The notes beneath the pieces are model-generated. The model was not told the origin of the DNA, searched no databases, and saw only the letters and a list, made by a program, of their open reading frames with translations. A stretch of DNA of 64,000 nucleotides. It comes from a virus. A program made the position numbers and the translations under genes. The stretch lies in IMG/VR virus record IMGVR_UViG_3300046694_000223, positions 62,001 to 126,000 of that record. One strand, written 5' to 3'. How positions within the stretch are numbered: the first letter of the stretch is position 1; each line of letters starts with the position of its first letter. Below are positions 4,281-32,813 of the stretch, one piece after another.

Positions 4281-5048
4281 TTAATACAATTTATGTTGTT
4301 GTTGTTGTAATGAATATTGATGTAACTCAAAGAAATCAACACAGAATTTTATATAAGTTTCTTTCTCCTTATTCGATACAATAAGTTTTTCTGGATCAAA
4401 TGAATACCTACCGTACCTGGTGTTGATTTCCTTCAACTTATCTTTCTCTTGCTCCATTTTGTTTTTAATTTTATCAACCAAACTCTTGTTGAACAGAAGT
4501 TGTATAGAATCATCAATAAATTGAAAAATAGATTTAGCTCTAAGTTTTTTATTTTTGAGGTAAAAATTGTACACGTATCTGTATGGGTGATCCAATATCG
4601 ACTCCCATTTTTGAATGCGTTCATTTACTAAGGCTATTTCTTTATTTTTCTCATCTGACAGTCTTTGATGTTCCTCAAATATATCATCATCTAAACTTGG
4701 TATGTCTCTGATTCCATACCATTGTTCGAAGATATTAAACTGTGCAATCTCAACATCTTCATGGTAAATTGCAAAAATTGATGTTTGTGATTTTGAACGT
4801 GGTCTGATGGTTAAATTAAATGGACAGTTTTTTGAAAAATATGAATTCATTAAATTAGCCATAAATTCACGAAACTTGCCATTATCATAACCAAGAGCAA
4901 TGAAGAGTGATGCTCTGTCATTCTTGAGTACTTTATCGGTTGATGTAAATAACAGTACTGGAGACTTGGTTGCAGCCTCTATAAAATTAATCTGAGTAGT
5001 TAGTTCATCAATTGAGTTTTGTACTTTTCCCTTAAATTGATTAAATAT
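4281..5048 (-). CDS. Unknown protein downstream of primase; apparent ATA start
   Basis: About 255 residues. The first in-frame ATG upstream (5231) would overlap the primase gene by 143 nt without an SD. The only strong SD (GAGGTGAG) points to ATA at 5048-5046; a GTG at 5057 lies inside that SD. The protein has long charged helices in its second half and a Gln-rich end. Position suggests a replication role, but no family was recognised. Probably co-transcribed with primase and helicase. Confidence 0.6.
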   Translation of the reverse strand: MFNQFKGKVQNSIDELTTQINFIEAATKSPVLLFTSTDKVLKNDRASLFIALGYDNGKFREFMANLMNSYFSKNCPFNLTIRPRSKSQTSIFAIYHEDVEIAQFNIFEQWYGIRDIPSLDDDIFEEHQRLSDEKNKEIALVNERIQKWESILDHPYRYVYNFYLKNKKLRAKSIFQFIDDSIQLLFNKSLVDKIKNKMEQEKDKLKEINTRYGRYSFDPEKLIVSNKEKETYIKFCVDFFELHQYSLQQQQHKLY

Positions 5049-5088
5049 ATTTCTCACCTCTTTCTTTTGATGAAACCTATAATTTATC

Positions 5089-6165
5089 TTAATTATGTAT
5101 CTTAAATTTGCATTCACTGTAATGCTTTTTGAAAACTTCTTCCCCCAAATCTGTAGGGCTTTCTTTGTTCTTAAACAGTCCAACATTATCCCATAAGGCA
5201 TACACATTTCTTGTCTTACCAAATTTAGCACCTTGCTTTTTCACCGCATCAATTGATTTATCTTTATCTAAAGCTATAACCGTACTTATTTCATTGCCAA
5301 GTCCTTTAATCATATTCACTTGCCACTCACTCAAATCATCGCCACTTATAGCTACACAATTCAGAAAACCATATTGACTACTCAGCCAGCATGTTTTTTC
5401 CGCTTCGTATATAATCACCTCCTTGGATTCTAGGATGTAAAATAATGCACGATGCCAATTATATAGTTCAATCATTTTGTTGAAATTGATGAGATATAGG
5501 AACTTATAAATATCTAACTCTTCGTAATTCTCAAATATCGTTCTACCCTTTATAGAAACAATCTCCCCGAAACTATTATGAATCGGGAAGATAATTCTTT
5601 GGCTCTTGATGTCATAACCTATTTGGAATTCTACTTGTGTTTGATATTCGATGCCCTCATCAATATATGACTTGTGTGGTAGCATAATAAATTGATTCAA
5701 TATCTCATCTTCGTAAATTTGATTCTCTACATTTTCAAGATTGCGCTTCTTTTTTCTCTGTTTTTTTACCTCTCTAAGCCATTTAAGATGATCATTGGTG
5801 GGCAATGGGGTATACGATCCATTCAAGAACTCCGTATAAGCCAATTTTTCACATATCCATCGTTTAGCTTTAGGAAGGTCGTTGCGTCTTTCTTCGTCTG
5901 AGTACTTGTCAAATACTATGTATGATACTAATCCATAAATGTCTATATCTGATTCGCCTAGCGTTCTAATACGACTTGATAGAGACTCATTAAGATAAAC
6001 TTGAACAGATCGTTTATTTGGAGACTCAAACTTAGATGGTAATTGCGCTTCATATCGGTTATTCTTCTTATCGACATGTTCACAACCCATTAGTTCAAGA
6101 AGCTCTCCTACTTTACCATCCTCCAGAATCTTATCTTTGATTAATTTTAAATCATTATTACTCAT
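5089..6165 (-). CDS. DnaG-like primase with TOPRIM domain
   Basis: 358 residues. The C-terminal half has TOPRIM features: the acidic motif IIYEAEKTCW near 250 and ALDKDKS near 297, where the Asp pair should bind metal. The N-terminal 80 residues occupy the place of the CHC2 zinc domain but keep only one Cys (residue 28), so zinc binding is probably lost. Primases make RNA primers for replication together with the helicase encoded next to it. Size and place match SPbeta yorJ. Confidence 0.8.
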   Translation of the reverse strand: MSNNDLKLIKDKILEDGKVGELLELMGCEHVDKKNNRYEAQLPSKFESPNKRSVQVYLNESLSSRIRTLGESDIDIYGLVSYIVFDKYSDEERRNDLPKAKRWICEKLAYTEFLNGSYTPLPTNDHLKWLREVKKQRKKKRNLENVENQIYEDEILNQFIMLPHKSYIDEGIEYQTQVEFQIGYDIKSQRIIFPIHNSFGEIVSIKGRTIFENYEELDIYKFLYLINFNKMIELYNWHRALFYILESKEVIIYEAEKTCWLSSQYGFLNCVAISGDDLSEWQVNMIKGLGNEISTVIALDKDKSIDAVKKQGAKFGKTRNVYALWDNVGLFKNKESPTDLGEEVFKKHYSECKFKIHN

Positions 6166-6187
6166 TTAAGCTCCCCCATAGGAGTTA

Positions 6188-7678
6188 TCAACGTCCATTA
6201 TTTGGTACTACGACCAGAGCAACTTCTTTCCAAATATTAAAATCATAATTAACTTCAAATATGATTTGTTCATCCTCGCTGCCTTCGCGATTTTTTGGCA
6301 GAAATAATATTAAGTATTTTTTATCGGGGTTTAACGTGTAATCAGCCTTTTCCCACTCACCATTAAATGAACTTTTAATCCAGTTATATGGTTTAAGGGC
6401 ATTCTTTCCATTTGGAAATTCGTCATCGAAAAGCAGCCTCCCTGCCATAACAACTGCTGCAACTTCAACAATCTCGGCAGATTTCCCGATGCAATCCAAG
6501 TCTATGTATCTGAATTCTTTACCTATTTTCAACTGAACCGTAGCAACAGTAGAGCAGTTATTAACCTCTTCTTTAATACAGTCATATAATTCTTGTGCTG
6601 AGTTAGAGAAAGCTAACCATCTTTCGATATTTTGTGAAAGATCCGGTTTAAAAGTATCAAAAAAAACATGCTTATAGCCAAGCGGACGAAACAATTCAAT
6701 ATTGCTAATTACATCTTCAATGCGATACTTTTTTAGCAGAACAAATTTGATAAGATCAGGTCTATGCTCTTCTAGCCAGTCTGCGGCTTCGTTAAGCGTA
6801 GCTTCGATGCTATCATTAAATCCACCACGATTAACCGTATCTCTCGCTATAGGCTTTTTTAGAATGCGTGACGCTACAGTAACCAGCAAACGAGACCTCC
6901 AACGTTTGATCCCTTCTTCATTTGCGAATATGATACCTTTTTCGTTTGCATCAATAAGCCCCAGAACTGCCTTCTCTGTCAAAATACTTGACTTGCCGAC
7001 TCCCGATGGGAGCACTAGATAAATAAGGTTCCCTAATTTTTGACCATTAATCTTTCTATTTAATCTAGGAGAATCATATAATGGAACTCCCACAGCTTCT
7101 CCTTCTTTTAGGTCTTTAATAGTGTCTCTCAAATTTTCAATCAGATTATAGACAACAACATCCCCACTATTGACATGTGAGAAGGACTCTTTGTTCTTGA
7201 ACTGAAAGAAACTTTGCATTTGTTTCATTGTCATATTTATTAATTTAGATATTAAGTTTGAGTTTGCAACATCAATTAGTCCTTCATTCTGAAGGTTTCT
7301 CAATGACTCATATTTTTGAATTTCGCTGAAGTGATATTCATCGTTTCCTTTTTCGCTATCACATTCAGAAATCACCTCTTCAATTGTTGCATACCCTCCG
7401 TACTGATTATAATAATCAAAATATGATTTCTTCCCTGTCTCTGGAGGTTTTGATGTTAAATATGAATAAGTAGTTACATCGTCAAATACTCTGATTCCGT
7501 TCTCATACATCTCTTTCCCAATATAGTAGTAATACCACCAGATCGGTTCTGTAAATGTATCCTTTGTAACTTTATTGGACTTGTACTTTTCATAAAGTCT
7601 TGGTGTATTCCACAAATAACCTATAAAAATGGACTCATGCACTTTCGAAGGATCAATGAATTCTTTGATGTTGTTAAT
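6188..7678 (-). CDS. DnaB-like replicative helicase; apparent ATT start
   Basis: About 496 residues with a RecA-type ATPase core. Walker A is PSGVGKSS near the middle, followed by IIFANEEG and a glycine-rich GGF segment; the N-terminal 160 residues match the DnaB N-domain layout. The first canonical start is GTG at 7642, without SD. A strong SD (AAGGAGG, 7690-7684) stands seven bases before ATT at 7678-7676, in frame and open, so ATT is the likely start. Size and place match SPbeta yorI. Works with the primase encoded downstream. Confidence 0.82.
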   Translation of the reverse strand: MNNIKEFIDPSKVHESIFIGYLWNTPRLYEKYKSNKVTKDTFTEPIWWYYYYIGKEMYENGIRVFDDVTTYSYLTSKPPETGKKSYFDYYNQYGGYATIEEVISECDSEKGNDEYHFSEIQKYESLRNLQNEGLIDVANSNLISKLINMTMKQMQSFFQFKNKESFSHVNSGDVVVYNLIENLRDTIKDLKEGEAVGVPLYDSPRLNRKINGQKLGNLIYLVLPSGVGKSSILTEKAVLGLIDANEKGIIFANEEGIKRWRSRLLVTVASRILKKPIARDTVNRGGFNDSIEATLNEAADWLEEHRPDLIKFVLLKKYRIEDVISNIELFRPLGYKHVFFDTFKPDLSQNIERWLAFSNSAQELYDCIKEEVNNCSTVATVQLKIGKEFRYIDLDCIGKSAEIVEVAAVVMAGRLLFDDEFPNGKNALKPYNWIKSSFNGEWEKADYTLNPDKKYLILFLPKNREGSEDEQIIFEVNYDFNIWKEVALVVVPNNGR

Positions 7679-7690
7679 AATCGTTCCTCC

Positions 7691-8260
7691 TTATAGAAAA
7701 TCAGAAATATCTAACTCGTCTTCTTTATTACTATATGTATTTTTACTCTTTAAACTCTGGTCTTTATGAGATTCTTGGGTCTCTACTCTTGCAGCAGCTT
7801 GTTTTTGCTTTTGAGCATACTGTCTTCGTGACCATGCATCATTCAAATATCCCACCATTGTCGATATGGTATAGTTGACTTTATTTACATCTGACCAGTC
7901 AGCAGTTTTTCCGGTGATGCTTTGATGGTTTACTGCTTCAGCCAATTTATAAGCCTCTAGCATCAGTAAAAAATCGGGACCTGTACGCCATTTACGCTCT
8001 CGCTTACCATTCTTAGTATCAAACCCTGCCCTCAGATCCTTAAGTCTTGTTATGTTCCCCTTGGGCAGAACGATAATATCGTGCAGTTTGATTATGTATT
8101 GGTATAAGTCATCCCATTGTTGATTTTCAATCCTAGTTGCTTCCTTATCCCGTTTCCATCGATCATGACAATATTCAACGTGGTAATATCGCTTATCTTC
8201 CTGGACCATATTTTCTTTGTGTCCACGCTGCTCACAGATAGGACATTTGACTAGTGCCAA
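7691..8260 (-). CDS. Zinc-finger protein upstream of helicase
   Basis: 189 residues, TTG start seven bases after GGAGGTGAT. Starts with a putative CPIC...H...C metal site (residues 6-31), has a helical middle, and ends in an acidic tail (EDELDISDFL). Place next to the helicase, and between the same neighbours as SPbeta yorH, suggests a replication accessory such as a loader; that is inference from context only. Confidence 0.6.
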   Translation of the reverse strand: MALVKCPICEQRGHKENMVQEDKRYYHVEYCHDRWKRDKEATRIENQQWDDLYQYIIKLHDIIVLPKGNITRLKDLRAGFDTKNGKRERKWRTGPDFLLMLEAYKLAEAVNHQSITGKTADWSDVNKVNYTISTMVGYLNDAWSRRQYAQKQKQAAARVETQESHKDQSLKSKNTYSNKEDELDISDFL

Positions 8261-8272
8261 TTTATCACCTCC

Positions 8273-8569
8273 TTACATCTGACTCTCCACAACTCTTTTC
8301 ATCTTCTTCATAACATTAGTTATTGATTCACTTATCTCCAATCTTTCTGCCTCATTCAATAGAAAGTCAATATGATCATCGAGCACATCAAAAGCAAATT
8401 GATTATCTTCAAGTCTCTCCTCATAATCTTCTTCTGCTCTGATTACTTCGCATAACTCTTCCACAGACTGAGCAATTTCATAACCCATATGCTGTTTGAT
8501 GAGTTTGACTAGATCATGGTTGTCATTAATGATCTCAAGTGAATTGTCAGGTAAATGAACTATCGGCAT
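8273..8569 (-). CDS. Hypothetical acidic helical protein, 98 aa
   Basis: Start at the second ATG (8569), six bases after AGAGGT. Rich in Glu and Asp, predicted helical, with pattern of an all-alpha NTP-pyrophosphatase-like protein, but not enough to name it. Confidence 0.7.
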   Translation of the reverse strand: MPIVHLPDNSLEIINDNHDLVKLIKQHMGYEIAQSVEELCEVIRAEEDYEERLEDNQFAFDVLDDHIDFLLNEAERLEISESITNVMKKMKRVVESQM

Positions 8570-8598
8570 AATCATACCTCTATGTATTTTTATTTTTA

Positions 8599-8781
8599 TT
8601 ATTCAGGCCAATTAAACGTCTGCGTTTTCTGAATCTCAGCAAAACCAACCTCGACTGCAACTTTGTGCTTTTTGTAATGTTCTACCGCATCGTCATAGGC
8701 TTTTTTTACTTCCTCATAGTCACCGTAGTATCCAAACACTTTCGTTCCATCTTCATAGTTATAAAATAGAATGTAATCCAT
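8599..8781 (-). CDS. Hypothetical protein, 60 aa
   Basis: SD AAGGAACAAATAAAA before the ATG. N-terminal beta pattern with Tyr (YILFYNYEDGTKVFGY), then a helix. Two bases separate it from the upstream gene. Confidence 0.7.
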   Translation of the reverse strand: MDYILFYNYEDGTKVFGYYGDYEEVKKAYDDAVEHYKKHKVAVEVGFAEIQKTQTFNWPE

Positions 8782-8783
8782 TT

Positions 8784-8984
8784 TTATTTGTTCCTTTCTT
8801 CGTATGAAATAATTTTCAATAATTCATCAAATGTCTCATTCTCTTGTTCATAAAGCGTAAATTCTCTAATAAATGTCTCTTCGACATGATCAAGAACTTG
8901 TTTGAAAGAATCGGTCATATCTTGAATGTCAAAATTATCATCAACTACTTCAACATCAAGCACCAATACAATCTTTTTATTCAT
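8784..8984 (-). CDS. Hypothetical acidic protein, 66 aa
   Basis: SD AGGAGTGGACAT before the ATG. Beta strand with DVEVVDD followed by acidic helices. No family recognised. Confidence 0.7.
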   Translation of the reverse strand: MNKKIVLVLDVEVVDDNFDIQDMTDSFKQVLDHVEETFIREFTLYEQENETFDELLKIISYEERNK

Positions 8985-9032
8985 ATGTCCACTCCTATAT
9001 CATATTTTGATGAAATACCTCATTCGTTGGAA

Positions 9033-9209
9033 TTACTTTGTAATCATGTAAAAAACGTGGACTTTATCTGATTCAATAACATTATCATCTGTATCTAGAA
9101 CACCGATTAGTGACTCATCTTCTGGAATATGTATGTCCTCGGTCTCTCTTAAGTGTTTAATGATAATCTCCTTTATTTCTTCTATGGTAAAAGTATATCC
9201 AATGGTCAT
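9033..9209 (-). CDS. Hypothetical acidic protein, 58 aa
   Basis: ATG at 9209 with SD GGGAGGTTTAT. Acidic alpha/beta protein. No family recognised. Confidence 0.7.
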   Translation of the reverse strand: MTIGYTFTIEEIKEIIIKHLRETEDIHIPEDESLIGVLDTDDNVIESDKVHVFYMITK

Positions 9210-9257
9210 ATAAACCTCCCATCCCTTTCCTAATAAAATATAATATCTTATACTTGC

Positions 9258-9449
9258 TCAATGCTGGTTATATGCATTTCTTTTAACTAAATGCATAATA
9301 TTGTTTGATTCTGCTGCCTCTTTGGTCATAATGACACGCTTATGTCCTGTGGCTTTTAGAAACAATATGATGTCTTCTGTGGTCTTGATTTTATCCCAGT
9401 CAATCTCATAATTAAAATCTTGATCGCTGCCTTTTGAGGTTTTGAACAC
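9258..9449 (-). CDS. Hypothetical protein, 63 aa
   Basis: ATG preceded by AAGGAGAGAGAATAAGTGTTC region SD. Contains a helix-loop pattern (TTEDIILFLKATGHKRVIM). Function unknown. Confidence 0.65.
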   Translation of the reverse strand: MFKTSKGSDQDFNYEIDWDKIKTTEDIILFLKATGHKRVIMTKEAAESNNIMHLVKRNAYNQH

Positions 9450-9476
9450 TTATTCTCTCTCCTTCTTTAAATCTGA

Positions 9477-9698
9477 TTATGACTCAACTTCATAACCAAC
9501 AATCAGACATCTAGCAAAGTCCAACGGCTGCAATTCATTAAGGACCTTGAATTCATCTTTATAATTAGTATTCATACAAATACCATTTCCAGAAAATCCT
9601 TTACAATGAGATATCGAATTAAATTGCTTATTCCAATTGTCTTTCGGCATCTTATCTAGTACTTCTGCAATTTCTTTAGATACTTTTACTTTGTTCAA
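9477..9698 (-). CDS. DUF1642-like small phage protein
   Basis: 73 residues. The C-terminus (ARCLIVGYEVES) has the GYEVE-type ending of DUF1642-like phage proteins of unknown role. Start overlaps the upstream gene by 23 nt; SD AAGGAGGTAAGTAGC. Confidence 0.6.
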   Translation of the reverse strand: MNKVKVSKEIAEVLDKMPKDNWNKQFNSISHCKGFSGNGICMNTNYKDEFKVLNELQPLDFARCLIVGYEVES

Positions 9699-10320
9699 TG
9701 CTACTTACCTCCTTATTCAATTTCTCCCCCATGCTCAACAGCGAATCTCTAAAATGATTGAAGTCTCCATTATTTGAATACCCACTTGAATATGTATAAG
9801 TTCTTGGATTAGTTAGATTATGTCCTTGATATTTTATGTATCGTTTTGCTTCGTCCAAGATAAAGAAGAATGCGACTGGTTCGTAATTGTCTTGCAGCCA
9901 AGTTGCAGCATACCAGTTGATACCATAGACTTTAAAATAATCTTCATAGTTCGTTACAAATATCTCATCCTCTTCTCCGTCTGCATTCGTGACAACGATA
10001 TCTTTGCAATCCAATTCTTTAAACGGCACAATATTAATTGGTGGTTCTTCTTTGCGATACTTATACCATTCCTCAACAGCCTCAACTTCTGAATCATGCC
10101 ATGTTTCATAGCTTTCATCTGTTGTAAAAATCAAATTTTCTCCATCAAAATAATCCGTCAAATCCTCATGATAAGGGTGATAAATAGGTCGATATGTTTC
10201 TACTGCATGAATCGGATTATTGGTGTATACATTATCATCTGCTCCTGGATATTGTTTCTCTGCAAATAATTTTAGGAATTGTTCTTGTTGTTCGGTTAGT
10301 TCGATTTCAATTTTCTTCAT
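9676..10320 (-). CDS. Hypothetical acidic protein, 214 aa
   Basis: Start at 10320 after SD AAAGGAGTAAAT; the longer frame lacks an SD. Opens with a helix (LTEQQEQFLKLFAEKQYPG) typical of small phage proteins, then a very acidic, aromatic alpha/beta body. No family recognised. Confidence 0.75.
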   Translation of the reverse strand: MKKIEIELTEQQEQFLKLFAEKQYPGADDNVYTNNPIHAVETYRPIYHPYHEDLTDYFDGENLIFTTDESYETWHDSEVEAVEEWYKYRKEEPPINIVPFKELDCKDIVVTNADGEEDEIFVTNYEDYFKVYGINWYAATWLQDNYEPVAFFFILDEAKRYIKYQGHNLTNPRTYTYSSGYSNNGDFNHFRDSLLSMGEKLNKEVSSIEQSKSI

Positions 10321-10355
10321 ATTTACTCCTTTATTCTTATTTATTGAAATTAAAA

Positions 10356-10520
10356 TTAATCCCAAAAAGTAATCTTTGTACGCACTTCAGCTTTCCGATC
10401 TTCTTTAAAAATCTCTGCTGAAATTCTTTCCGCCTCTTCATACAACTCTTTCAGTGTTCCCTTAATTCCCATTCCATTATAGGTAACACCATTTTTATAA
10501 ACAAACATCATATACAACAT
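10356..10520 (-). CDS. Hypothetical protein, 54 aa
   Basis: ATG at 10520 with SD GGAGGGATAAG. The start (MMFVYKNG) resembles the N-terminus of the protein at 1346-1651; the rest is a charged helix. Function unknown. Confidence 0.65.
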   Translation of the reverse strand: MLYMMFVYKNGVTYNGMGIKGTLKELYEEAERISAEIFKEDRKAEVRTKITFWD

Positions 10521-10561
10521 CTTATCCCTCCTCTTTTGATAAAACAGAACTTTTATGCTAT

Positions 10562-10909
10562 TTAAAGATTCCCATATTCTTGTCGAATCCTATCTGCGAA
10601 CTCTTTTACTGCCATGCCAATTGCGGCACCAGAAGAGGATGTTTGCTTACTAATATTGCTCAAAGCTAATTTCATTTTATTTGTTAGAAATTCTGAATAT
10701 TTATCCTCTCTAATCTCATAAATCTCAGGCCGACCACCAAAATAACGACCACCAACCTTGTTCTTTTGTTCAATATCTTTTTCTTCGTAAACTAGCGTAC
10801 AATCTGCAACTGTTACTGATTTATATGTATACCCACCATTTTCACTCAAGTACTTAAGATAATCTGTATATTCTTCTTTCTCAACTCTAATGAAATTTCC
10901 CATCATCAT
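10562..10909 (-). CDS. Hypothetical protein, 115 aa
   Basis: Three ATG codons in a row follow GGGGAGACAT. Beta-rich first half, helical end. Ten bases downstream of the VWA gene, so probably in its operon. Confidence 0.7.
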   Translation of the reverse strand: MMMGNFIRVEKEEYTDYLKYLSENGGYTYKSVTVADCTLVYEEKDIEQKNKVGGRYFGGRPEIYEIREDKYSEFLTNKMKLALSNISKQTSSSGAAIGMAVKEFADRIRQEYGNL

Positions 10910-10918
10910 ATGTCTCCC

Positions 10919-11746
10919 CTACTCGATAATTTTATAAGCATCTAAGATTGTATTCATAACATCATTCTTATCTTTAATTACGGACTTAATGAATTTATTA
11001 TGATGAACACTCCTAAAGCAGCTCATCAATGTACTTGATCTATTATACTGATTTGTTTCAACATATTGAAATTGCGCAACCTTGTTCAAAATGTCATAAA
11101 GATAATTTTCTGTTCTTCTGTTGTCCGAAGTTAGATTATCACCATCAGTTATATGGATTACATAAATATCTTTGTTCTTATAGTCTTTTGAATTAATTAA
11201 TTCAAGACAACGAACATATGCCGAGGATGCAATTGTTCCTCCACTCACCGAATCCTCAAAAAAGGTAGTTTCGTTGACGCTCTTTGCTTCAGTGCTATAT
11301 GCAACATATTCCAATTCAACTTTCACATACTTACTTTCAAGTAGCATCTTGTTCCAAATTGCAATTGCTTTGCCCATATACCTTTCAAAAAAGCCCATTG
11401 ATCCTGAGTTATCCATCATAGCAATAAGTACCGCGTTGGAGTGATTACTTGTGTTAACAGGTGAATAGTGTTGAGATTCAAGGTATTTGTTTAATTTATC
11501 AAATACTTCGTTAATTTTATATTTATTTACCACAACATCCTCAAGTGTAAGTAGTTCAGAAAGTTCCATACTATCTACAATAGAATAAGAATTCATCCGT
11601 TCCAAGATAATCTTTTTAAGACCTTCGTAATCATTTTTTAGTCCGCTATTATCTGGATCAAACTTAAGCTTACCATATGTATCACACAACCCCTGAATAA
11701 ACTCTTCATGTTTTACGCCTTCAATTTTAATCATTAATATATACAT
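10919..11746 (-). CDS. YhbH-like (DUF444) VWA-domain protein
   Basis: 275 residues. The MIDAS motif DNSGSMG is near residue 112, followed by VELEYVAYSTEA, a FFEDSVSGGTIASSAY block and ITDGDN, the motif order of the YhbH/YeaH family. In Bacillus YhbH is linked to sporulation and works with the PrkA kinase; the phage copy is shorter at the N-terminus than host YhbH. Metal-dependent protein binding is expected from the family. Has its own promoter at 11775-11803. The start is uncertain: ATG 11734 also fits. Confidence 0.78.
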   Translation of the reverse strand: MYILMIKIEGVKHEEFIQGLCDTYGKLKFDPDNSGLKNDYEGLKKIILERMNSYSIVDSMELSELLTLEDVVVNKYKINEVFDKLNKYLESQHYSPVNTSNHSNAVLIAMMDNSGSMGFFERYMGKAIAIWNKMLLESKYVKVELEYVAYSTEAKSVNETTFFEDSVSGGTIASSAYVRCLELINSKDYKNKDIYVIHITDGDNLTSDNRRTENYLYDILNKVAQFQYVETNQYNRSSTLMSCFRSVHHNKFIKSVIKDKNDVMNTILDAYKIIE

Positions 11747-11774
11747 CTCCTCATATGTATTATCTCACAAGTTC

Positions 11775-11803
11775 ATCATATCACACTATATTATTATTGT
11801 ACA
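11775..11803 (-). promoter_or_regulatory. Promoter of the VWA gene with adjacent element
   Basis: -35 TGTACA, 17 bp, -10 TATGAT. The AT-rich element (11806-11820) starts two bases upstream of the -35 and overlaps the stop codon of the upstream gene. Confidence 0.7.
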
Positions 11804-11808
11804 TATAT

Positions 11809-12087
11809 TTATTTATTAAATATTTTCTGCCAACATCCACAGTCACAATTCAAGTCATGCTCGATTGGCTTTGCTCCAGGAATAGGCAATCTCGCTGTTG
11901 GAAAGCTATACGGCCTATTGGCATATTGCAATCTGCCTTCTTGATACTCAATTTCGTCAAGGATCTCATTTAACTCTTTCTTTAATTTACGTTTTGGTTT
12001 AATTTCAATCTCATCTCTGAGTTCAAGTGCTCTTGTTTTTAGAGTCTTTGTGCTGACTCGGTATAACATTTCTCCCCACGCGCCCAT
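11809..12087 (-). CDS. Hypothetical protein with Cys-rich end, 92 aa
   Basis: SD AAGGAGGAGTTTT before the ATG. Basic helical middle; C-terminal HDLNCDCGCW may bind metal. Its stop lies inside the promoter element of the next gene. Confidence 0.7.
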   Translation of the reverse strand: MGAWGEMLYRVSTKTLKTRALELRDEIEIKPKRKLKKELNEILDEIEYQEGRLQYANRPYSFPTARLPIPGAKPIEHDLNCDCGCWQKIFNK

Positions 12088-25284: not shown

Positions 25285-25306
25285 TTGATATGAATATAAT
25301 TTATAA

Positions 25307-25684
25307 TCACTTTTTATTGTGCCACTTCTCAACATCTTTTTCAGTTATACACCCAGTTTTTAGATACATCTGCCAAACACCGTTCTGTTCACCATCAGCA
25401 TAATAATACGGGAATGGGCGGTATCCCAAAATTCTTGCTTTAACTACACTCTTTTTATCAATCAGAGTATGTGCTGGAGATGTGTGGCTTTTCCACTTAC
25501 CAAAGCCGTTCTCCCATTCAACTATTTTCCCTGCTTCTCCATGGCTACAACAACAACCTAGAGTAATAATGCCTAAATTGTTTAACATCTGTATTTCTGG
25601 AGCGATACATGCGTCTACTTTTACCGTTTGTTTGTTCTGTTTATTGATTACGTCAACATCACAATATGTACCATGTTTGCACAT
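25307..25684 (-). CDS. Cys-rich conserved protein, 125 aa
   Basis: A CIAPEIQMLNNLGI segment is followed by GCCCSHG, which with other Cys/His could bind metal. SD AGAGGGGAACTATATAA. Function unknown. Confidence 0.7.
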   Translation of the reverse strand: MCKHGTYCDVDVINKQNKQTVKVDACIAPEIQMLNNLGIITLGCCCSHGEAGKIVEWENGFGKWKSHTSPAHTLIDKKSVVKARILGYRPFPYYYADGEQNGVWQMYLKTGCITEKDVEKWHNKK

Positions 25685-25722
25685 TTATATAGTTCCCCTC
25701 TCTAATATATAAAATCACAATT

Positions 25723-25842
25723 CTATGCATTATTCTTCAGTTTCTTTTCCAATGCAATACAGTTTTCGATTGACCTGATTAAAATTTCCAGATAACGTTT
25801 TGAGGTTCTTGATGATGCATCACCATTAATCCTTATATCCAT
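25723..25842 (-). CDS. Very small basic protein, 39 aa
   Basis: ATG at 25842 with SD GGGGTTGGAGAT. A single amphipathic helix. Function unknown; short length keeps the call moderate. Confidence 0.55.
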   Translation of the reverse strand: MDIRINGDASSRTSKRYLEILIRSIENCIALEKKLKNNA

Positions 25843-25876
25843 ATCTCCAACCCCATTTCTTAATAAATTTCTCCTT

Positions 25877-26497
25877 TTAAAAGGTTTTATAAACAACATT
25901 TATCTGTTCATCGCTACTTCGTACTTGAAAGCATGAGCACTCGTAACACTCAGACGAAGGGTTTAACCCGTCTGATCCAACTTCATCCCCGAATGCTCCA
26001 TATGGGCAATTAGAACCTCTGCTACCATCTTTGTATTCTGTTATATATGTATATTTGCAAACTGGAAATCTTTCCTTGTATGCTTTTATTTGTCTAGGAG
26101 AATACATACCGTAATCTTCATATACTTCATCAGGAAGAATCCCTAGTTGCATATCTATCCAATCTTGGCTTTCTATTGTATGTGCACAAGCTCCATATGC
26201 ACATCTATTCCAGAATAATTCCTGCCCCTCGACTGGAAATGTGTCAACAAATTCAATAATACAATCTTCATATTTATAATCTTCGCACCATCCATCAATT
26301 AACTCGGGTTCTTCATCAAACCATTTCTTAATATCTTTAGGTTTGCATTCATCGCATAATTGCATATATGTATAATTATTATCAAAACTGCTGCCGTAAT
26401 TGCTTCTGTATAGAGAGTATGTTGTTGTTATCTTCTTTACTAGACATTTAAAGCAGATATCTTTAAAGTCTTCAATTGCTTTATGATTATTACTCAA
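25877..26497 (-). CDS. Cys-rich hypothetical protein, 206 aa
   Basis: Several CxxC-type pairs (CFKC near 15, CDEC near 48, and a CYECSC cluster near 185) suggest two metal sites. Acidic and aromatic. SD AGGGGATGATTAATTG. Function unknown. Confidence 0.72.
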   Translation of the reverse strand: MSNNHKAIEDFKDICFKCLVKKITTTYSLYRSNYGSSFDNNYTYMQLCDECKPKDIKKWFDEEPELIDGWCEDYKYEDCIIEFVDTFPVEGQELFWNRCAYGACAHTIESQDWIDMQLGILPDEVYEDYGMYSPRQIKAYKERFPVCKYTYITEYKDGSRGSNCPYGAFGDEVGSDGLNPSSECYECSCFQVRSSDEQINVVYKTF

Positions 26498-26517
26498 TTA
26501 ATCATCCCCTTTTCTAT

Positions 26518-26886
26518 TTAACAAAATGTCCCGATGTTCCGTCTCACTGTGAAATTATTATTGTTCAACTCTTCAATCAATTGTTCCACACTTACATTAC
26601 CATTATATTTATTCTTAATACCCTCAATCAAAACATTCAACGCTTTATCTGGTTTGTTCTTCTTCGTTTCAGGCTCTTTTACCAATACATAATTAGTCAA
26701 ACCGCCAGCCAATTCTTCAACATTGATTTCGTACCCAGCAACATACATCTCCTGGATTCTTGCGCTGTATCGCAGAGCGACCTTGACCAAATCCACATTG
26801 GTTACACCGTTATTCCCGGCAGACCGCAGCAGATTAAGGATCTGAAGTCGTTGTGATTCAGTTCTGACTTTAGTCTCAGTATCCAT
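26518..26886 (-). CDS. Winged-helix DNA-binding protein, 122 aa
   Basis: Residues 12-50 (RLQILNLLRSAGNNGVTNVD...RIQEMYVAGYEI) fit the HTH_39-like winged helix of phage proteins; the second half is helical and charged. A regulator or replication accessory. One base separates it from the gene upstream. Confidence 0.68.
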   Translation of the reverse strand: MDTETKVRTESQRLQILNLLRSAGNNGVTNVDLVKVALRYSARIQEMYVAGYEINVEELAGGLTNYVLVKEPETKKNKPDKALNVLIEGIKNKYNGNVSVEQLIEELNNNNFTVRRNIGTFC

Positions 26887-26887
26887 A

Positions 26888-27175
26888 TTAAGCCTCCTCT
26901 AATTTCTTCTTCTTATTTGCTCTGCCTTTAGCCAAATTAGCAGCCAATTCAGCTCTGCGTTCATCACTCATTGTTCGTTTCGAATCACTCTTTTTTCGGA
27001 ATGAAACTTGCTCATAATCAACCAGATATGTTTTATTTCCTTCTGCATCAATTTTCACTGCTTCAAACCCTGCTTTTTCAAGCCGAGTCTGCATCTTTCC
27101 CGAAGAACTAAATATCTCCCACTGATTTGTTTCATCGTTGCAAAGACAGATCGTCTCACGTTCAATTGCCAACAT
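26888..27175 (-). CDS. Hypothetical protein with basic tail, 95 aa
   Basis: Beta-rich N-terminus (YLVDYEQVSFRKKSDS) then a Lys/Arg-rich helix to the end, suited to nucleic-acid binding. Co-transcribed with the winged-helix gene. Confidence 0.7.
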   Translation of the reverse strand: MLAIERETICLCNDETNQWEIFSSSGKMQTRLEKAGFEAVKIDAEGNKTYLVDYEQVSFRKKSDSKRTMSDERRAELAANLAKGRANKKKKLEEA

Positions 27176-27224
27176 ATTTATTTCCTCGCCTTCATTATGT
27201 ATTTTTCTTCATAAAAGTTTTATT

Positions 27225-27461
27225 TTATGCTTCTATATATTGTTTTGCTTCCTCATATGTATTAAACATGCAACCCGAATCCTGAACTATCTCTTCGCCC
27301 TCAGCATCTAAATACTCAAAATCCACATCCCAAACTTGATGCTTCTTCATTAAACTCACCAAATTTAGTCGTCTAATTTTATGCCCTTCTTCGATCAGTT
27401 TCCCTTTGTAATATAATCCCTCCCAATCATCCAAACTTACAACAATGAATTTATTTTCCAT
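27225..27461 (-). CDS. Hypothetical protein, 78 aa
   Basis: ATG at 27461, inside the end of the upstream gene. Contains WEGLYYKGKLIEEGHKI, as in several small phage proteins of unknown role. Confidence 0.68.
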   Translation of the reverse strand: MENKFIVVSLDDWEGLYYKGKLIEEGHKIRRLNLVSLMKKHQVWDVDFEYLDAEGEEIVQDSGCMFNTYEEAKQYIEA

Positions 27462-27717
27462 ATGTTTCAATCCGTTTCTGAAGTTTATTTTTTGTGCGCT
27501 GCTTCTTAGTTTGTGATTGAATTTTCTGTAAACGTTGAATCTCGTGTTGTTTTTCCACTGTTTCTCCCACAGCTTTTAGTGCGATCCCAATAGTTTTTCC
27601 AGAAACCGCAAATATGTTTGATATATTATTAAGACTCTCAACTAATTCATCCATATTTTTATCATTAATAGTGCTTTTTTCTTTCTTGCCAAATAAATTC
27701 AGAATATCAATCCTCAA
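27451..27717 (-). CDS. Hypothetical protein with basic end, 88 aa
   Basis: TTG start at 27717 after GGAGAT; the ATG at 27732 has no SD. Amphipathic middle helix (IGIALKAVGETVEKQ) and very basic C-terminus. Confidence 0.6.
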   Translation of the reverse strand: MRIDILNLFGKKEKSTINDKNMDELVESLNNISNIFAVSGKTIGIALKAVGETVEKQHEIQRLQKIQSQTKKQRTKNKLQKRIETYGK

Positions 27718-27889
27718 TATTATCATCTCCATGATTATGTTTATTTTTAAAATATTCCTTACCGCTCATTTCTCTTGGAGTTGATTTTCCACATCTCAAA
27801 CACCTACTCAATGTTTCTGAGTTGTAAATTTCTTCTCCACATTTGGAACATACTTCATTACCGAATCCAAAATCCTTATTGTTGTTCAT
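27707..27889 (-). CDS. Zinc-ribbon protein, 60 aa
   Basis: CSKCGEE at 14-20 and CLRCGKS at 30-36 form a four-Cys zinc ribbon. ATG overlaps the stop of the upstream gene. Confidence 0.75.
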   Translation of the reverse strand: MNNNKDFGFGNEVCSKCGEEIYNSETLSRCLRCGKSTPREMSGKEYFKNKHNHGDDNIED

Positions 27890-28062
27890 GATTTACCAGC
27901 ATCCCCCAATTCATGAATTTTGCTGATGACCTGATAATACAAACTGGGCATTTCTTCATCTATAATTAACATATCTAAGTTTTTACAATACCCAATGTAC
28001 CTATCGAGTTTCACTTCTGTATCCTCTATGTACTTCTTTATTTGCTCTAAAAAATCAACCAT
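27886..28062 (-). CDS. Hypothetical helical protein, 58 aa
   Basis: ATG at 28062 with SD AAAGGGGGATTAATA. Ends with TGA sharing bases with the next ATG. Helical, acidic. Confidence 0.68.
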   Translation of the reverse strand: MVDFLEQIKKYIEDTEVKLDRYIGYCKNLDMLIIDEEMPSLYYQVISKIHELGDAGKS

Positions 28063-28095
28063 TATTAATCCCCCTTTCTGTTTAAAATGCGGATT

Positions 28096-28395
28096 TCATA
28101 AAAACATTGAGCGTTCCTCTAACCTCTTCAATAATTCGGGAACAATTACATTTTTGAGCGACCAATCATAGGTTGATTCGTGTTCTCTCCTACAATTTTT
28201 CAGATTGTTTTCTACGCTATACATAAGTGCCTCAAGACAAAGTTTGCTAGTCAACGCTCTGAATCCATCGGAATTGGCTCGAACAGATTTATATTCTTCC
28301 AATGATACAGAACTATCACTTAACTTGTTTACATCAACTTCAACACCGTCAATCGTGACATGTGGATCAAATTCTCTGCCATAAATCTTAATCAT
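28096..28395 (-). CDS. Hypothetical protein, 99 aa
   Basis: Starts with a short beta motif (IKIYGREFDPHVTIDGVEVD) then helices. SD GGGGAGAATAAATA. Confidence 0.7.
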   Translation of the reverse strand: MIKIYGREFDPHVTIDGVEVDVNKLSDSSVSLEEYKSVRANSDGFRALTSKLCLEALMYSVENNLKNCRREHESTYDWSLKNVIVPELLKRLEERSMFL

Positions 28396-28398
28396 TAT

Positions 28399-28758
28399 TT
28401 ATTCTCCCCTCATTCCAACCACGTTAAAGTGTTTATGAATTGTCTCTACATTTGTTCCGACAGCTCCGTCAATTACAAAATGTCCATTTTGCTTCTTATT
28501 GGTTATTTCTAGTCTCTGTCCTTTACGGAAATTATTCATGCAGTCATCTTTAGCCTCAATGATCAATCCAACCTCTAATTTTGGCAAAAGTTTGCTTAAC
28601 TCATCTACGAATTGTTGCACTTTTATTCCATATTCTTTTCTGCTTTCAAGACTTGAGGCAATGACATGATTAACGTCCATATTTTTATTCTTGATATCGT
28701 TAATCATGTCCTCAACGGATGTTTCATATATGTATTTGATGGTTTTAAGTCTATTCAT
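28399..28758 (-). CDS. Hypothetical protein, 119 aa
   Basis: Helical first half; the second half (KKGQRLEIT-like, with HFVIDGAVGTNVETIHKHF) may be a small beta barrel. Start overlaps the upstream gene by 4 nt. Confidence 0.7.
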   Translation of the reverse strand: MNRLKTIKYIYETSVEDMINDIKNKNMDVNHVIASSLESRKEYGIKVQQFVDELSKLLPKLEVGLIIEAKDDCMNNFRKGQRLEITNKKQNGHFVIDGAVGTNVETIHKHFNVVGMRGE

Positions 28759-28937
28759 TGTTTAACTTCTTCTACAAATTCAATCGAATCTCGATCAAAT
28801 GCATAATCATTTCCAACATTAAATCTAGCTGCAAGCAGAATGTTCATTGCTTCTCGAAATGTTTCGTAACTTCCCACACACAATTCTTTTGTGAGTCCCG
28901 ATTTAAAATAAACCTTTACTTTAATGTCTCGCTTCAT
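28755..28937 (-). CDS. Hypothetical protein, 60 aa
   Basis: Beta strand (DIKVKVYFKSGLTKEL) then helix and strand, like many small phage proteins. Function unknown. Confidence 0.7.
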   Translation of the reverse strand: MKRDIKVKVYFKSGLTKELCVGSYETFREAMNILLAARFNVGNDYAFDRDSIEFVEEVKQ

Positions 28938-28978
28938 TTACTATTTTCTCCTCTATATTTTGATGTTTTAAGTCTATT

Positions 28979-29170
28979 TTAATCTTTTGGAATAGTTTCG
29001 AATGTATTTACTGATTCATCAATTATGACTGGCACACCATCATAGAATCCAATATAACCTTCGTTTGCATTTTCATCATTGATCAAAATGCTTTGATCTT
29101 TTAACTTATTCCAAAAACGACTACTCATTTTAATTTCTTTTAGCAACACTGATATCTTCTCCTTTTCCAT
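28979..29170 (-). CDS. Hypothetical protein, 63 aa
   Basis: Helical start, beta-rich end with GYIGFYDGVPVII. No family recognised. Confidence 0.68.
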   Translation of the reverse strand: MEKEKISVLLKEIKMSSRFWNKLKDQSILINDENANEGYIGFYDGVPVIIDESVNTFETIPKD

Positions 29171-29199
29171 TCTTAATCAAATAACAGTTTTATGAGCAT

Positions 29200-29343
29200 T
29201 TACTCTTCATCTAACAACCGTTCTACATAGTCAAGAATGTCTTTTGTCTTATCTCTAAGTTCCAACAAGTCACTATATGTATAATCTCCACTTGCAACAT
29301 CATCCAGGACTTCTTTATAGATTTCTAAATTAATCGGGAACAT
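29200..29343 (-). CDS. Hypothetical acidic protein, 47 aa
   Basis: ATG at 29343 with SD AAAGGAAGTGATGTT. Acidic helical protein. Confidence 0.65.
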   Translation of the reverse strand: MFPINLEIYKEVLDDVASGDYTYSDLLELRDKTKDILDYVERLLDEE

Positions 29344-29357
29344 AACATCACTTCCTT

Positions 29358-29903
29358 TTAATTTAATGGTTGTTCGTTTTCCACCTCAATAATATTCTTG
29401 ATAATTTTTACCGCCTTATCGAATTCATAGTTGATAACCTGATAGTCGTACCGCTTCTTAGCAAACTTGATTCCGTCAGTAGTCACACGACTAAGAATCT
29501 TATCAACTGTGTCACCACGTTCATGCATACGTCTCATGCGTGTCTTCTTATCTACTTTGATATAAATTGTGATAAACTCAATGTCTGTAATTTTTTCCTT
29601 TAAATCTCTGATTCCGTCTGGATCACAAACATATAAAAGGCGGTTATTACTATTGCGAATTTGATCAACGGTGCTGAAGTAATGATTGCCCTCAATCAAG
29701 CTGTAGGCAGCCACTTCGCCGTTTTTCTCAAACTGCTTATATTCCTCTACAGAGCAGAACATATGCCCGTATTCGTCTTCGTAGCGCGGCTGTCTCGTTG
29801 TATAAGACTGCAAAACATCGTAACCGTGTTTTTCTAATTCTTTAGCAATCTCTGTCTTCCCTGAACCGCTATAACCCATTAAGACGTAAACTTTAGGCTT
29901 CAT
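29358..29903 (-). CDS. Guanylate-kinase-like P-loop kinase
   Basis: 181 residues. P-loop GYSGSGKT at 9-16; the SYTTRQPRYEDEYGHMF block is the GMP-binding region of guanylate kinases; RMRRMHERGD is the lid arginine motif. Expected to phosphorylate (d)GMP, feeding the nucleotide pool for phage DNA synthesis. Shares one base with the stop of the 3D-domain gene upstream. Confidence 0.8.
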   Translation of the reverse strand: MKPKVYVLMGYSGSGKTEIAKELEKHGYDVLQSYTTRQPRYEDEYGHMFCSVEEYKQFEKNGEVAAYSLIEGNHYFSTVDQIRNSNNRLLYVCDPDGIRDLKEKITDIEFITIYIKVDKKTRMRRMHERGDTVDKILSRVTTDGIKFAKKRYDYQVINYEFDKAVKIIKNIIEVENEQPLN

Positions 29904-30448
29904 TAATCCAACTCTCCCATTTTAATAATTTTGACTTTTAACTTCTGCCGCCCAAATTCCATACAATCATCATATGATTCCATAAACACATCAATGTGTT
30001 TATTTTTTACCTTAGACCCTGAATCATAGATTGTTCTATATCCCAGAGTTTCGATATATACAATTGTTCCAAGTGGTAGTTTGCTTAAGTCTCCAGCCGC
30101 TGTAACGCCTTGCACGGTCTTTTTTCCTGATCTGGTAATCGAGTACCCCTTGTCTCCTGGGCGCTTGCCTGTAGAACTTACACCGTTCTCATAGGCGGTA
30201 ATAACATATGTATCCCATGTATCATCTGGAGTTAATTCTTGTTCAAATTCTCTATACTCTTCCGCAATTGTCGAAATTGTTTTTGGTTCAACCTTTGCAA
30301 CTTCTTTCTGTTTCTCTACCTTAACCGTCTGGACAACTTTCTTTTCAAATGGCATGGTCTTATTTGATTCTCTAGCTTCACTTGCGTTCTGAATATTTGA
30401 ATGACTCAACGCAATCGTGAATATCAGAGACAGAATTATCTCTAGCAT
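29903..30448 (-). CDS. 3D-domain protein with N-terminal anchor
   Basis: 181 residues from the ATG at 30448 (SD GGAGGTAACG). Hydrophobic N-terminus (about 3-16) for export or anchoring, a charged linker, then a 3D domain: YVITAYENG, GVTAAG, TIVYIETLGYRTIYDSGSKV, HIDVF. The three conserved Asp of the name are in place for the second and third. 3D domains belong to lytic transglycosylase-like cell-wall enzymes; SPbeta YorM has one too. Confidence 0.8.
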   Translation of the reverse strand: MLEIILSLIFTIALSHSNIQNASEARESNKTMPFEKKVVQTVKVEKQKEVAKVEPKTISTIAEEYREFEQELTPDDTWDTYVITAYENGVSSTGKRPGDKGYSITRSGKKTVQGVTAAGDLSKLPLGTIVYIETLGYRTIYDSGSKVKNKHIDVFMESYDDCMEFGRQKLKVKIIKMGELD

Positions 30449-30461
30449 CGTTACCTCCACA

Positions 30462-30496
30462 TTTTAGATATAGCCCCACATTTTACTGTGAGGCTA
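30462..30496. other. Intergenic hairpin before the 3D gene
   Basis: 9 bp stem (AGCCTCACA/TGTGGGGCT, one G-U pair) with 6 nt loop. On the minus strand no T run follows, so it may only slow transcription or protect RNA ends. Confidence 0.6.
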
Positions 30497-30507
30497 TTTA
30501 TTTTCAT

Positions 30508-30897
30508 TTATTTAATATTATTCTTAACTCTCATAATGCTTGATTGAACATATTGAATAGCTGCATCTAATTTGTTTTTTGCTTCTGTGATTTTTTCAAA
30601 GGAAAGCAGCACTTCTCTGTAATTTCTAACATCTTTTTTATTAATAAATTCATTCATTTGTTTTTTAAGTTCTTTTAATTCTACTTCCAAAAATGGATTA
30701 GTTGTTTCTGAAAAAACAATATGTCTATCAATCTCTTGATAACTTTTATGTACCTCTTTAGAGTACATATTATTCAGAATGTATAACGAGTCTGCCGTTG
30801 TTCTATAGTCTTTTATGCTTCCCGACAATCTAAATTCTTCAAGCAAGCCTATAATATTTCTGATTGACATCTGCAATTCAAGTGTTTTTGTTTCCAT
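30508..30897 (-). CDS. Hypothetical coiled-coil protein, 129 aa
   Basis: Almost entirely helical, with several heptad-like stretches. First gene after a large inverted repeat. Function unknown. Confidence 0.7.
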   Translation of the reverse strand: METKTLELQMSIRNIIGLLEEFRLSGSIKDYRTTADSLYILNNMYSKEVHKSYQEIDRHIVFSETTNPFLEVELKELKKQMNEFINKKDVRNYREVLLSFEKITEAKNKLDAAIQYVQSSIMRVKNNIK

Positions 30898-30938
30898 AAA
30901 CTATCTTCCTCCTGATGTTCGGTCATTACCCTTAAATT

Positions 30939-30987
30939 TTGTCTATATGTAGTTCTATGTTTAAAATTAGATACCACATATAGACAA
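30939..30987. repeat. Perfect 12 bp inverted repeat
   Basis: TTGTCTATATGT (30939-30950) and ACATATAGACAA (30976-30987) with a 25 nt spacer, between the ATPase gene and the coiled-coil gene. Could be an operator pair or an AT-rich terminator. Confidence 0.75.
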
Positions 30988-31030
30988 TAGATCTTCATGA
31001 AAACTGTCTTTTATCAGATGTTATTATGTA

Positions 31031-32206
31031 TTAGTTTGGCAGTTCATAGTTTGTAATAAATTCAACTGCTTTGGTCAGTGCTTCAATGTCTGTAGCATTA
31101 TTGTAGTTCGCCATTCCAAGCAACTTCTTAAATTCGGGAACAATATGTTCAGCTAATTGATTATTAGTGAATCGGGCTTTTTGTATATTGATCTTTTCAA
31201 TCAATTCTTCAGAAGTTGCTTTGGTTTCTTCTGCTTCTGCAAATTCTTTAGCCTCATCGTTTCGCTCTTGTTCTTGCTCTTGTTTAAGTTCCGCAATACT
31301 TTTATTGGTCTTTTTCAATTGTCCTTTGACGGCATCTTCAAATACCTTTAAGAAATTCTTTGCACTATATTCCACTGGTTCTTCAGGAAGATCGGTATAA
31401 CGACCACCAGCAATCGAAATATATTCAGTAGGACGGAATACCATAACAGTACGGGTTTCGTGGAAGTTACTTCCTTTTTCTCTACCCTTCTTGTCTTTGA
31501 TATTGTCAGACATTTCATCACCATCTTTATTTACGACCACAACCTCATTAAACAAGCAGCAAATCAGACTGGCTTGAGATTCAAAGATTTTACGCGCTGT
31601 TGCATGCATCATTAATTCAATGGAGTTAAATTTCATACCGTTATAAAGAGTAGTTTCCTTTTCCTTGGTCCATGCCAGTCCAGCAATTCCATAACCAGCG
31701 TTTCGCAAAGCATCAAAAGGTTTCTTCATCTCTTCATAAAGAGCCGTATAACCATTTTCGGCATTTCCAGATGCGGTGTTCAAGTCTTGCAGAGAGATAA
31801 TTGACTGTTTACCATAACGCTTTGCACGATCCTTTAGGAGCCAAGATGTAGCAGCATCAACACATCTATCTGCCGTATCTACACCAATGAGTTTAACAAT
31901 ACGCCCTTCCTTTGCTTCTTTCACTAGTCCTGGAACTACATCCTTTTTAAAGAATTCCCATTGTTTCCATGCATCTTCATCCGAACCTTCTTTATGGATC
32001 GGAATGATATTCTCAAGTTCCCAAGTTTCATATCCCGGCTCGAAAGCTAACAACAGAGCCTCTTCTGGGTTGGTATAATGCAACTCAGTAACTTCTTTCC
32101 AAAGTCGAGTTTTGCCCGTCTTGTATGTTCCGACAATCAGACTCATGATAGAATGAAGCTCAACCTTTGGTGTGTTTTTTTGTACCTTATCTCGAAATCC
32201 TGCCAT
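31031..32206 (-). CDS. Sak4/AAA_24-like recombination ATPase
   Basis: 391 residues. Walker A GTYKTGKTRLW near 27-37, Walker B-like VKLIGVDTADR near 100-110, and a helical C-terminal extension. Matches the AAA_24/Sak4 RecA-like family of phage annealing ATPases that work with an SSB. It follows the SSB-like and nuclease genes. Size and place match SPbeta yorG. Confidence 0.78.
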   Translation of the reverse strand: MAGFRDKVQKNTPKVELHSIMSLIVGTYKTGKTRLWKEVTELHYTNPEEALLLAFEPGYETWELENIIPIHKEGSDEDAWKQWEFFKKDVVPGLVKEAKEGRIVKLIGVDTADRCVDAATSWLLKDRAKRYGKQSIISLQDLNTASGNAENGYTALYEEMKKPFDALRNAGYGIAGLAWTKEKETTLYNGMKFNSIELMMHATARKIFESQASLICCLFNEVVVVNKDGDEMSDNIKDKKGREKGSNFHETRTVMVFRPTEYISIAGGRYTDLPEEPVEYSAKNFLKVFEDAVKGQLKKTNKSIAELKQEQEQERNDEAKEFAEAEETKATSEELIEKINIQKARFTNNQLAEHIVPEFKKLLGMANYNNATDIEALTKAVEFITNYELPN

Positions 32207-32231
32207 TAATTAAATCTCTCCCTTAATATAT

Positions 32232-32813
32232 TTATTTTATTGATTTATAAAAAGAACAATATGTATCAATGTAGTCCCATCTATCTAAAAACTCATGATA
32301 CTTTTTACCTCTTGAATTTACTTCTATGGTCTTGACCTTTGCCAACACACTTGGAACTATGTATGATTTTTCTATCTCGTCCAGTTCATTTAGCGCAAAT
32401 AAGATATATAAATCACATGTAGCATTCTGCTTATTTGTTGCAAAAGTATGCACAAGTGTTTTGTGGAGGTATGACCTTGGGCTTGCATCCTTGATATCGA
32501 TCTTTACACAACCATTGATCAGTAAGTCATAAGGATGTCTCACTGTCATTTTTTCTACTTCAAAACCAATCTTTCGTATGATATCAATTGCCTTTTCTTC
32601 ATGATCGTTTCCTAGTTTTGAACATGAATCCTTTATATCAAGCTCTAGTAATTTAGCCCAATCCCTAAATCCAATACTTTTACACACCTTATTGGCAAAA
32701 GAATAGTTATTATCTAACTCAACTATTTCATTAAAAGTTGGCATCCTATCTAGATTTAGTTTATTTTTTCTATCAATTATTCCAGTCCTCAGTTCTTCAT
32801 GCAAGTCTTTGAT
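32232..32813 (-). CDS. Putative PD-(D/E)xK nuclease; apparent ATC start
   Basis: About 193 residues. The core PYDLLINGCVKIDIKDA carries the Asp and DxK residues expected of the PD-(D/E)xK fold; an upstream Glu and a later DLYILFAL strand fit too. Relatives include resolvases and restriction enzymes. The first canonical start (TTG 32804) is 16 bases from the SD, while ATC at 32813 is seven bases after GGAGGTG. SD and start are buried in a strong hairpin. Confidence 0.65.
   Translation of the reverse strand: MKDLHEELRTGIIDRKNKLNLDRMPTFNEIVELDNNYSFANKVCKSIGFRDWAKLLELDIKDSCSKLGNDHEEKAIDIIRKIGFEVEKMTVRHPYDLLINGCVKIDIKDASPRSYLHKTLVHTFATNKQNATCDLYILFALNELDEIEKSYIVPSVLAKVKTIEVNSRGKKYHEFLDRWDYIDTYCSFYKSIK

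What the first reader, a model, noticed from the sequence alone, without database searches (positions are those of the whole stretch)
5046..32813. Three replication-related genes with strong SDs but ATT, ATC or ATA starts
Helicase (ATT 7678), nuclease (ATC 32813) and the gene after primase (ATA 5048) each have a strong SD 6-7 bases before a near-cognate codon, while the canonical in-frame starts are too far or lie inside the SD. Such starts are rare and IF3-sensitive, as in infC. Repeated use in one module suggests deliberate low or regulated translation.
Basis: partly seen in the sequence, partly recalled or inferred. Interest (0 to 1): 0.6.

Follow-up and report, generated by a model that had tools for sequence, protein, structure and literature searches.

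The report
Phage genes starting at AUU/AUC/AUA
The three odd start codons are real and part of a wider habit: SPbeta-like phages, above all those of Paenibacillus, start roughly one gene in twenty at AUU, AUC or AUA behind a strong ribosome-binding site, probably to keep those proteins scarce, and gene-finding software misses or shortens such genes.

Summary
Confirmed and extended. All three genes have a strong Shine-Dalgarno (SD) site at good spacing before ATT 7678, ATC 32813 or ATA 5048, with no competitive ATG/GTG/TTG. For the DnaB-like helicase comparison comes close to proof: 17 of 20 distinct helicases in the two clades around it (Paenibacillus where the host is named) start at ATA, ATT or ATC, with at least six third-base changes; Bacillaceae counterparts use ATG (16/18) or TTG. 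The rival GTG 7642 is not conserved, and the protein is conserved upstream of it. ATA 5048 is kept in two homologs. The nuclease has no close homolog; ATC rests on SD geometry.

A blind test of 61 codons in seven related phages found ATT, ATA, ATC and CTG the four most enriched at SD spacing in genes lacking a canonical start: AUH 73 observed vs 12.7 expected, about 5% of genes. Four Bacillus SPbeta-like phages: 18 vs 4.0. Hosts about 1%; four other phages no excess.

'Replication module' is too narrow: early and late genes are alike. Low translation is likely (about 10% of AUG in published S. aureus reporters); IF3 sensitivity is untested.

The parts
6188..7678 (-). DnaB-like replicative helicase, 496 codons, start ATT at 7678
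   Evidence: PHROG 19 E 3.7e-30; AUH start conserved in homologs
7686..7692 (-). SD AAGGAGG of the helicase, overlapping the TAA stop (7691-7693) of the upstream gene
7691..8260 (-). upstream gene of unknown function (PHROG 6344); its stop codon lies in the helicase SD
5089..6165 (-). DNA primase, ordinary ATG start; lies between two AUH genes
   Evidence: PHROG 47 E 4.3e-26
4281..5048 (-). 255-codon gene after primase, function unknown, start ATA at 5048
   Evidence: ATA kept in L215 and L216 (89 and 86% identity); no family hit
5054..5061 (-). SD AGAGGTGA of the post-primase gene; contains the rival GTG 5057
32232..32813 (-). 193-codon putative nuclease, start ATC at 32813
   Evidence: PHROG 28936 E 2.8e-40, unknown function; only a 36% homolog found
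32820..32827 (-). SD GGAGGTGA of the putative nuclease, with an in-frame TGA inside
50824..51039 (-). possible fourth case: small gene with SD AGAAGGTGA and ATA 51039; GTG 51048 inside the SD is the alternative
   Evidence: ambiguous, not counted in the tallies

Best explanation
ATT 7678, ATA 5048 and ATC 32813 are the true initiation codons. SPbeta-like phages, especially those of Paenibacillus, use AUU/AUA/AUC (and sometimes CUG) as starts in about 3-7% of genes, each with a strong, optimally spaced SD that recruits the ribosome despite the mismatched third base. The most likely function is a translational throttle: fMet-tRNA pairs poorly with AUH and IF3 destabilises such complexes, so proteins needed in few copies (replicative helicase, DNA polymerase, RecJ-like exonuclease, nucleotide kinases, methyltransferases, homing endonucleases) are made at a small fraction of the AUG rate. 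Shown by sequence: codon identity, SD geometry, conservation of the AUH class with drift of its third base, exchange with AUG/UUG/GUG in orthologs, enrichment over controls. Inferred: the low rate, IF3 dependence, and selection for scarcity.
For: Helicase: of 20 distinct sequences in the two clades that include the window, 17 start AUH, 2 TTG, 1 ATG; of 18 Bacillaceae-type, 16 start ATG, 2 TTG, none AUH. Fitch parsimony gives 8 start-codon changes in the AUH clades, at least six of them within AUH. Blind scan: among 61 codons at SD spacing 6-8 in genes without a canonical start, ATT 35 vs 6.9, ATA 27 vs 3.1, ATC 11 vs 2.7, CTG 8 vs 1.1 are the top four; in Bacillus SPbeta-like phages the same four are in the top five. 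AUH totals 73 vs 12.7 (binomial p 1.6e-37), 18 vs 4.0 (p 2.9e-8), hosts 10 vs 5.3, other phages 1 vs 1.6. Orthologs carry AUH or ATG/TTG/GTG with SD at the aligned position: RecJ-like ATA, ATA, ATA, ATC vs ATG, ATG; a 306-codon family ATC, ATA, ATT; a Dit-like tail protein ATT, ATG, GTG, ATA. Functions. The pipeline recovers host infC at ATT. Published: conserved AUU/AUA starts with extended SD give about 10% of AUG expression in S. aureus (PMC13009471); IF3 represses noncanonical starts (PMC5472188).
Against: No expression or N-terminal data; IF3 dependence not testable here. Third-base drift in the helicase alone does not prove selection against AUG: with about 16 semi-independent tips and one ATG a neutral third base is not rejected on that gene; the argument rests on the contrast with genome-wide use in the same phages (865 ATG vs 70 AUH). 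The dG threshold makes the strong-SD trend partly circular; for helicases, where starts were placed by homology, AUH SDs are modestly stronger than ATG ones (p 0.013, not corrected for relatedness). One helicase AUH call (L025) has a weak SD. The nuclease lacks a close ortholog. One of seven AUH calls in this record (28695) is probably false, since an ATG-led ORF covers it.
Confidence: 0.78

Rival explanations
1. Initiation fidelity is relaxed in these host-phage pairs, so AUH works nearly as well as AUG and the AUH starts are drift in AT-rich genomes, not a throttle.
For: Third base wanders among A, T and C; AUH is spread over functions and over early and late strands; Paenibacillus-genus genomes carry a second IF3-like protein that lacks arginines conserved in infC, Bacillaceae do not.
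Against: ATG still outnumbers AUH 865 to 70 in the same phages; host chromosomes show about 1% AUH calls, near background; Bacillus SPbeta-like phages with single-IF3 hosts also show an excess.
Confidence: 0.2
2. The AUH genes form a regulated class, switched on when IF3 activity falls relative to ribosomes, for instance after induction.
For: Same codon class and SD architecture as infC, whose starts in five hosts are ATT or ATC; IF3 repression of such starts is established (PMC5472188).
Against: Functions are mixed and early and late genes are equally affected; no IF3 homolog in the SPbeta-like records searched.
Confidence: 0.15
3. The proteins start at downstream canonical codons (GTG 7642, TTG 32804, or GTG 5057) and the SDs are incidental.
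For: Standard gene callers would choose these.
Against: Helicase residues 2-12 are conserved as protein and GTG 7642 is absent in most homologs; rival starts have no usable SD; enrichment is specific to near-cognate codons.
Confidence: 0.05
4. Initiation at AUH is mainly by translational coupling: ribosomes ending the upstream gene re-initiate at AUH.
For: The upstream stop overlaps the helicase SD here and in many homologs.
Against: AUH genes are no closer to an upstream gene end than ATG genes (38% vs 40%); the strong SDs suggest independent initiation.
Confidence: 0.1

Closest known systems
infC (IF3 gene), AUU/AUC/AUA start
   Same: AUH codon, strong GGAGGTG-type SD, class conserved with third-base changes (ATT or ATC in the hosts read here)
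   Different: infC is a single autoregulated host gene; here dozens of unrelated phage genes
ccpN and cvfC1 of Firmicutes (PMC13009471); E. coli pcnB (cited there)
   Same: conserved AUU/AUA start with strong SD that lowers output
   Different: isolated chromosomal genes; not viral, not genome-wide
SPbeta youA, yorY and yotK, annotated from ATT in NC_001884
   Same: AUU starts in the type phage of the group, recognised by its annotators
   Different: three genes of unknown function; the present pattern includes core replication genes and a whole clade
Streptomyces sigR, GTC start repressed by IF3 (PMC5472188)
   Same: noncanonical start used to limit protein amount
   Different: different codon, one gene, experimentally shown

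Membership tests
infC-type AUH start | AUU/AUC/AUA initiation codon with strong SD at optimal spacing and no competing canonical start | tested here: met
infC-type AUH start | start class conserved in orthologs | tested here: met
   helicase and ATA 5048 gene; not testable for the nuclease
infC-type AUH start | translation repressed by IF3 | not testable with these tools
   needs changed IF3 levels in cells
infC-type AUH start | autoregulation by the gene's own product | not tested
   not expected: no IF3_C domain in any of ten SPbeta-like records
SPbeta-like phages | homologs of yorI helicase, yorJ primase and yorK RecJ | tested here: met
   helicase 56% identical to Goe12 and helicase-primase order; RecJ-like gene at G57678-58970, apart from the primase
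SPbeta-like phages | genome-wide similarity sufficient for genus assignment | not tested
   DNA match to Goe11/12/14 covers only 28% of a 4-kb query at 64% identity

The most novel reading that the evidence does not exclude
A lineage-wide translational class in viruses: SPbeta-like phages of Paenibacillus set the dose of many proteins, the replisome included, through AUH starts whose output depends on host initiation fidelity, perhaps shaped by the second IF3-like protein found in every Paenibacillus-genus genome sampled and in none of the Bacillaceae sampled.
Probability: 0.12. Interest if true: 0.8.

Novelty: new variant of a known kind. Interest (0 to 1): 0.58.

Why it matters
AUH starts in bacteria are known from a handful of genes. 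Here a phage group uses them for about one gene in twenty, including helicase, DNA polymerase and RecJ, and keeps the class over deep divergence. It gives a natural test set for how initiation codon, SD strength and IF3 set protein dose. It also means that standard gene callers, which accept only ATG/GTG/TTG, drop or truncate real genes: in Goe12 a 60-codon and a 70-codon AUH gene are unannotated and another lacks its first 34 codons.

Tried and rejected
Phage tRNA with an altered initiator anticodon: no tRNA or tmRNA in the 166,580-base record. Phage-encoded IF3: no IF3_C domain in ten SPbeta-like records, while hosts gave the expected hits. Replication-specific use: rejected, AUH fraction 5.4% on the helicase strand vs 4.6% on the other. 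Coupling as the general cause: no enrichment for a close upstream gene end. A general property of large AT-rich Firmicute phages: rejected, Sundance 0, 2S-4 1, SPO1 (100 kb) 0, phiL47 (50 kb) 2 weak calls. Sequencing error: rejected, many independent genomes agree. Nuclease homologs: none among close relatives; one distant homolog in a gut phage begins at ATG behind a similar SD. In-frame TAG reported in RecJ-like genes of G000 and G020 was only the stop just before the ATG start. Literature: no paper in the held library describes systematic AUH starts in phages; the library is incomplete.

Full report
What was checked. The three starts are as described. Predicted SD:16S duplexes are strong (-11.1, -16.7, -15.1 kcal/mol) at aligned spacing 6, 8 and 7, where ATG genes of the same record peak.

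What the window is. It is bases 62,001-126,000 of a 166,580-base virus record, related to SPbeta-like phages: the helicase is 56% identical to that of Bacillus phage Goe12, and 71-80% identical to those of other records including a prophage in Paenibacillus sp. XY044. There are no tRNA genes.

Helicase. Fifty-five further loci were collected and starts were placed by homology and SD. The tree (40 distinct rows) has two well-supported clades with 17 AUH, 2 TTG and 1 ATG, and one Bacillaceae clade with 16 ATG and 2 TTG. Within the AUH clades the codon changed at least six times among ATA, ATT and ATC. The first residues (xYIKEFVDPS) are conserved up to the AUH codon, and align with the ATG-led N-terminus of the Bacillaceae proteins. 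One member (L025) has a weak SD and is uncertain.

The ATA 5048 gene. Two close homologs (89 and 86%) keep ATA behind the same SD; a 54% homolog uses TTG one codon upstream, and a 28% homolog GTG two codons upstream, both with SD. The ATC 32813 gene has only one distant homolog (36%), which starts at ATG behind a similar SD, so its start rests on SD geometry and on the general pattern.

Genome-wide test. I called genes by codon usage alone, without assuming a start codon, then asked which codon stands at SD spacing 6-8 in genes that have no SD-led ATG/GTG/TTG (scripts). In seven Paenibacillus-type records the four most enriched of 61 codons are ATT (35 vs 6.9), ATA (27 vs 3.1), ATC (11 vs 2.7) and CTG (8 vs 1.1), that is, the remaining near-cognates of AUG by first or third base. 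AUH total 73 vs 12.7; 67 genes, 5.0% of 1336. Four Bacillus SPbeta-like records: 18 vs 4.0, 2.8%. Three host chromosomes (1.2 Mb): 10 vs 5.3, including infC itself. Four unrelated or distant phages: 1 vs 1.6. Expected values come from codon frequencies in the same genomes; a few AUH calls are false (for example 28695 in this window).

Orthology test. Aligning AUH genes with orthologs shows exchange with ATG, TTG and GTG at the same position, each with an SD, as start codons do and internal isoleucines do not. Families include DNA polymerase, RecJ-like exonuclease, thymidylate kinase, thymidine kinase, C5 methylase, HNH and GIY-YIG endonucleases, Dit and a minor tail protein, an antirepressor-like protein, a macro-domain protein and many of unknown function.

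Interpretation. The use is not confined to replication: AUH is 5.4% on the helicase strand and 4.6% on the other. Helicase is special in being AUH nearly throughout its clades while the same phages use ATG twelve times more often than AUH overall; that is the best evidence for gene-specific selection, and fits a protein needed in few copies. Published reporters give AUU/AUA with extended SD about 10% of AUG in S. aureus (PMC13009471), and IF3 represses noncanonical starts (PMC5472188). Whether the rate is constant or regulated cannot be told from sequence.

Prior knowledge. AUH starts are known in infC, pcnB, ccpN and cvfC1. In the SPbeta type record three genes (youA, yorY, yotK) are annotated from ATT (coordinates; codons), so single cases in this group were recognised. 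Newer automatic annotation of Goe12 omits or truncates the equivalents. I found no description of the clade-wide pattern or of its use for replisome genes in the held library.

Host correlate. All 41 genomes sampled from the genus of XY044 have a second, divergent IF3_C protein; all 41 Bacillaceae genomes sampled have one IF3 only. The paralog read here (L193) keeps both IF3 domains but lacks the RFxGR and GR arginines conserved in infC. A link to AUH use is speculation; the host chromosomes do not show a clear AUH excess.

Noticed in passing
host genomes G008, G029-G068 vs G028, G069-G108; locus L193: A second, divergent IF3-like gene (PF00707) in 41/41 Paenibacillus-genus genomes, one IF3 only in 41/41 Bacillaceae genomes. 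The copy read lacks arginines conserved in canonical IF3.
   Followed up: partly
hosts L186-L190: infC itself starts at ATT in four hosts and at ATC in Paenibacillus sp. XY044, behind GGAGGTG; a useful internal control.
   Followed up: yes
Goe12 (MT601273) 104591-104770, 107017-107229, 35521: Two AUH-led genes are missing from the deposited annotation and one is truncated by 34 codons.
   Followed up: yes
SPbeta NC_001884 128118-128327: Unannotated 69-codon ORF with strong SD and ATT start.
   Followed up: no
window 50824-51048: Small gene with GTG 51048 inside the SD and ATA 51039 at SD spacing; its start is ambiguous.
   Followed up: no
G10681 (+ strand, outside the window): 748-codon gene led by CTG with a strong SD; CTG is the fourth enriched near-cognate start in these phages.
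   Followed up: partly
G017 RecJ-like gene, L084/L098: The gene is split between two frames (residues 2-80 and 76-430), a frameshift or assembly error.
   Followed up: no
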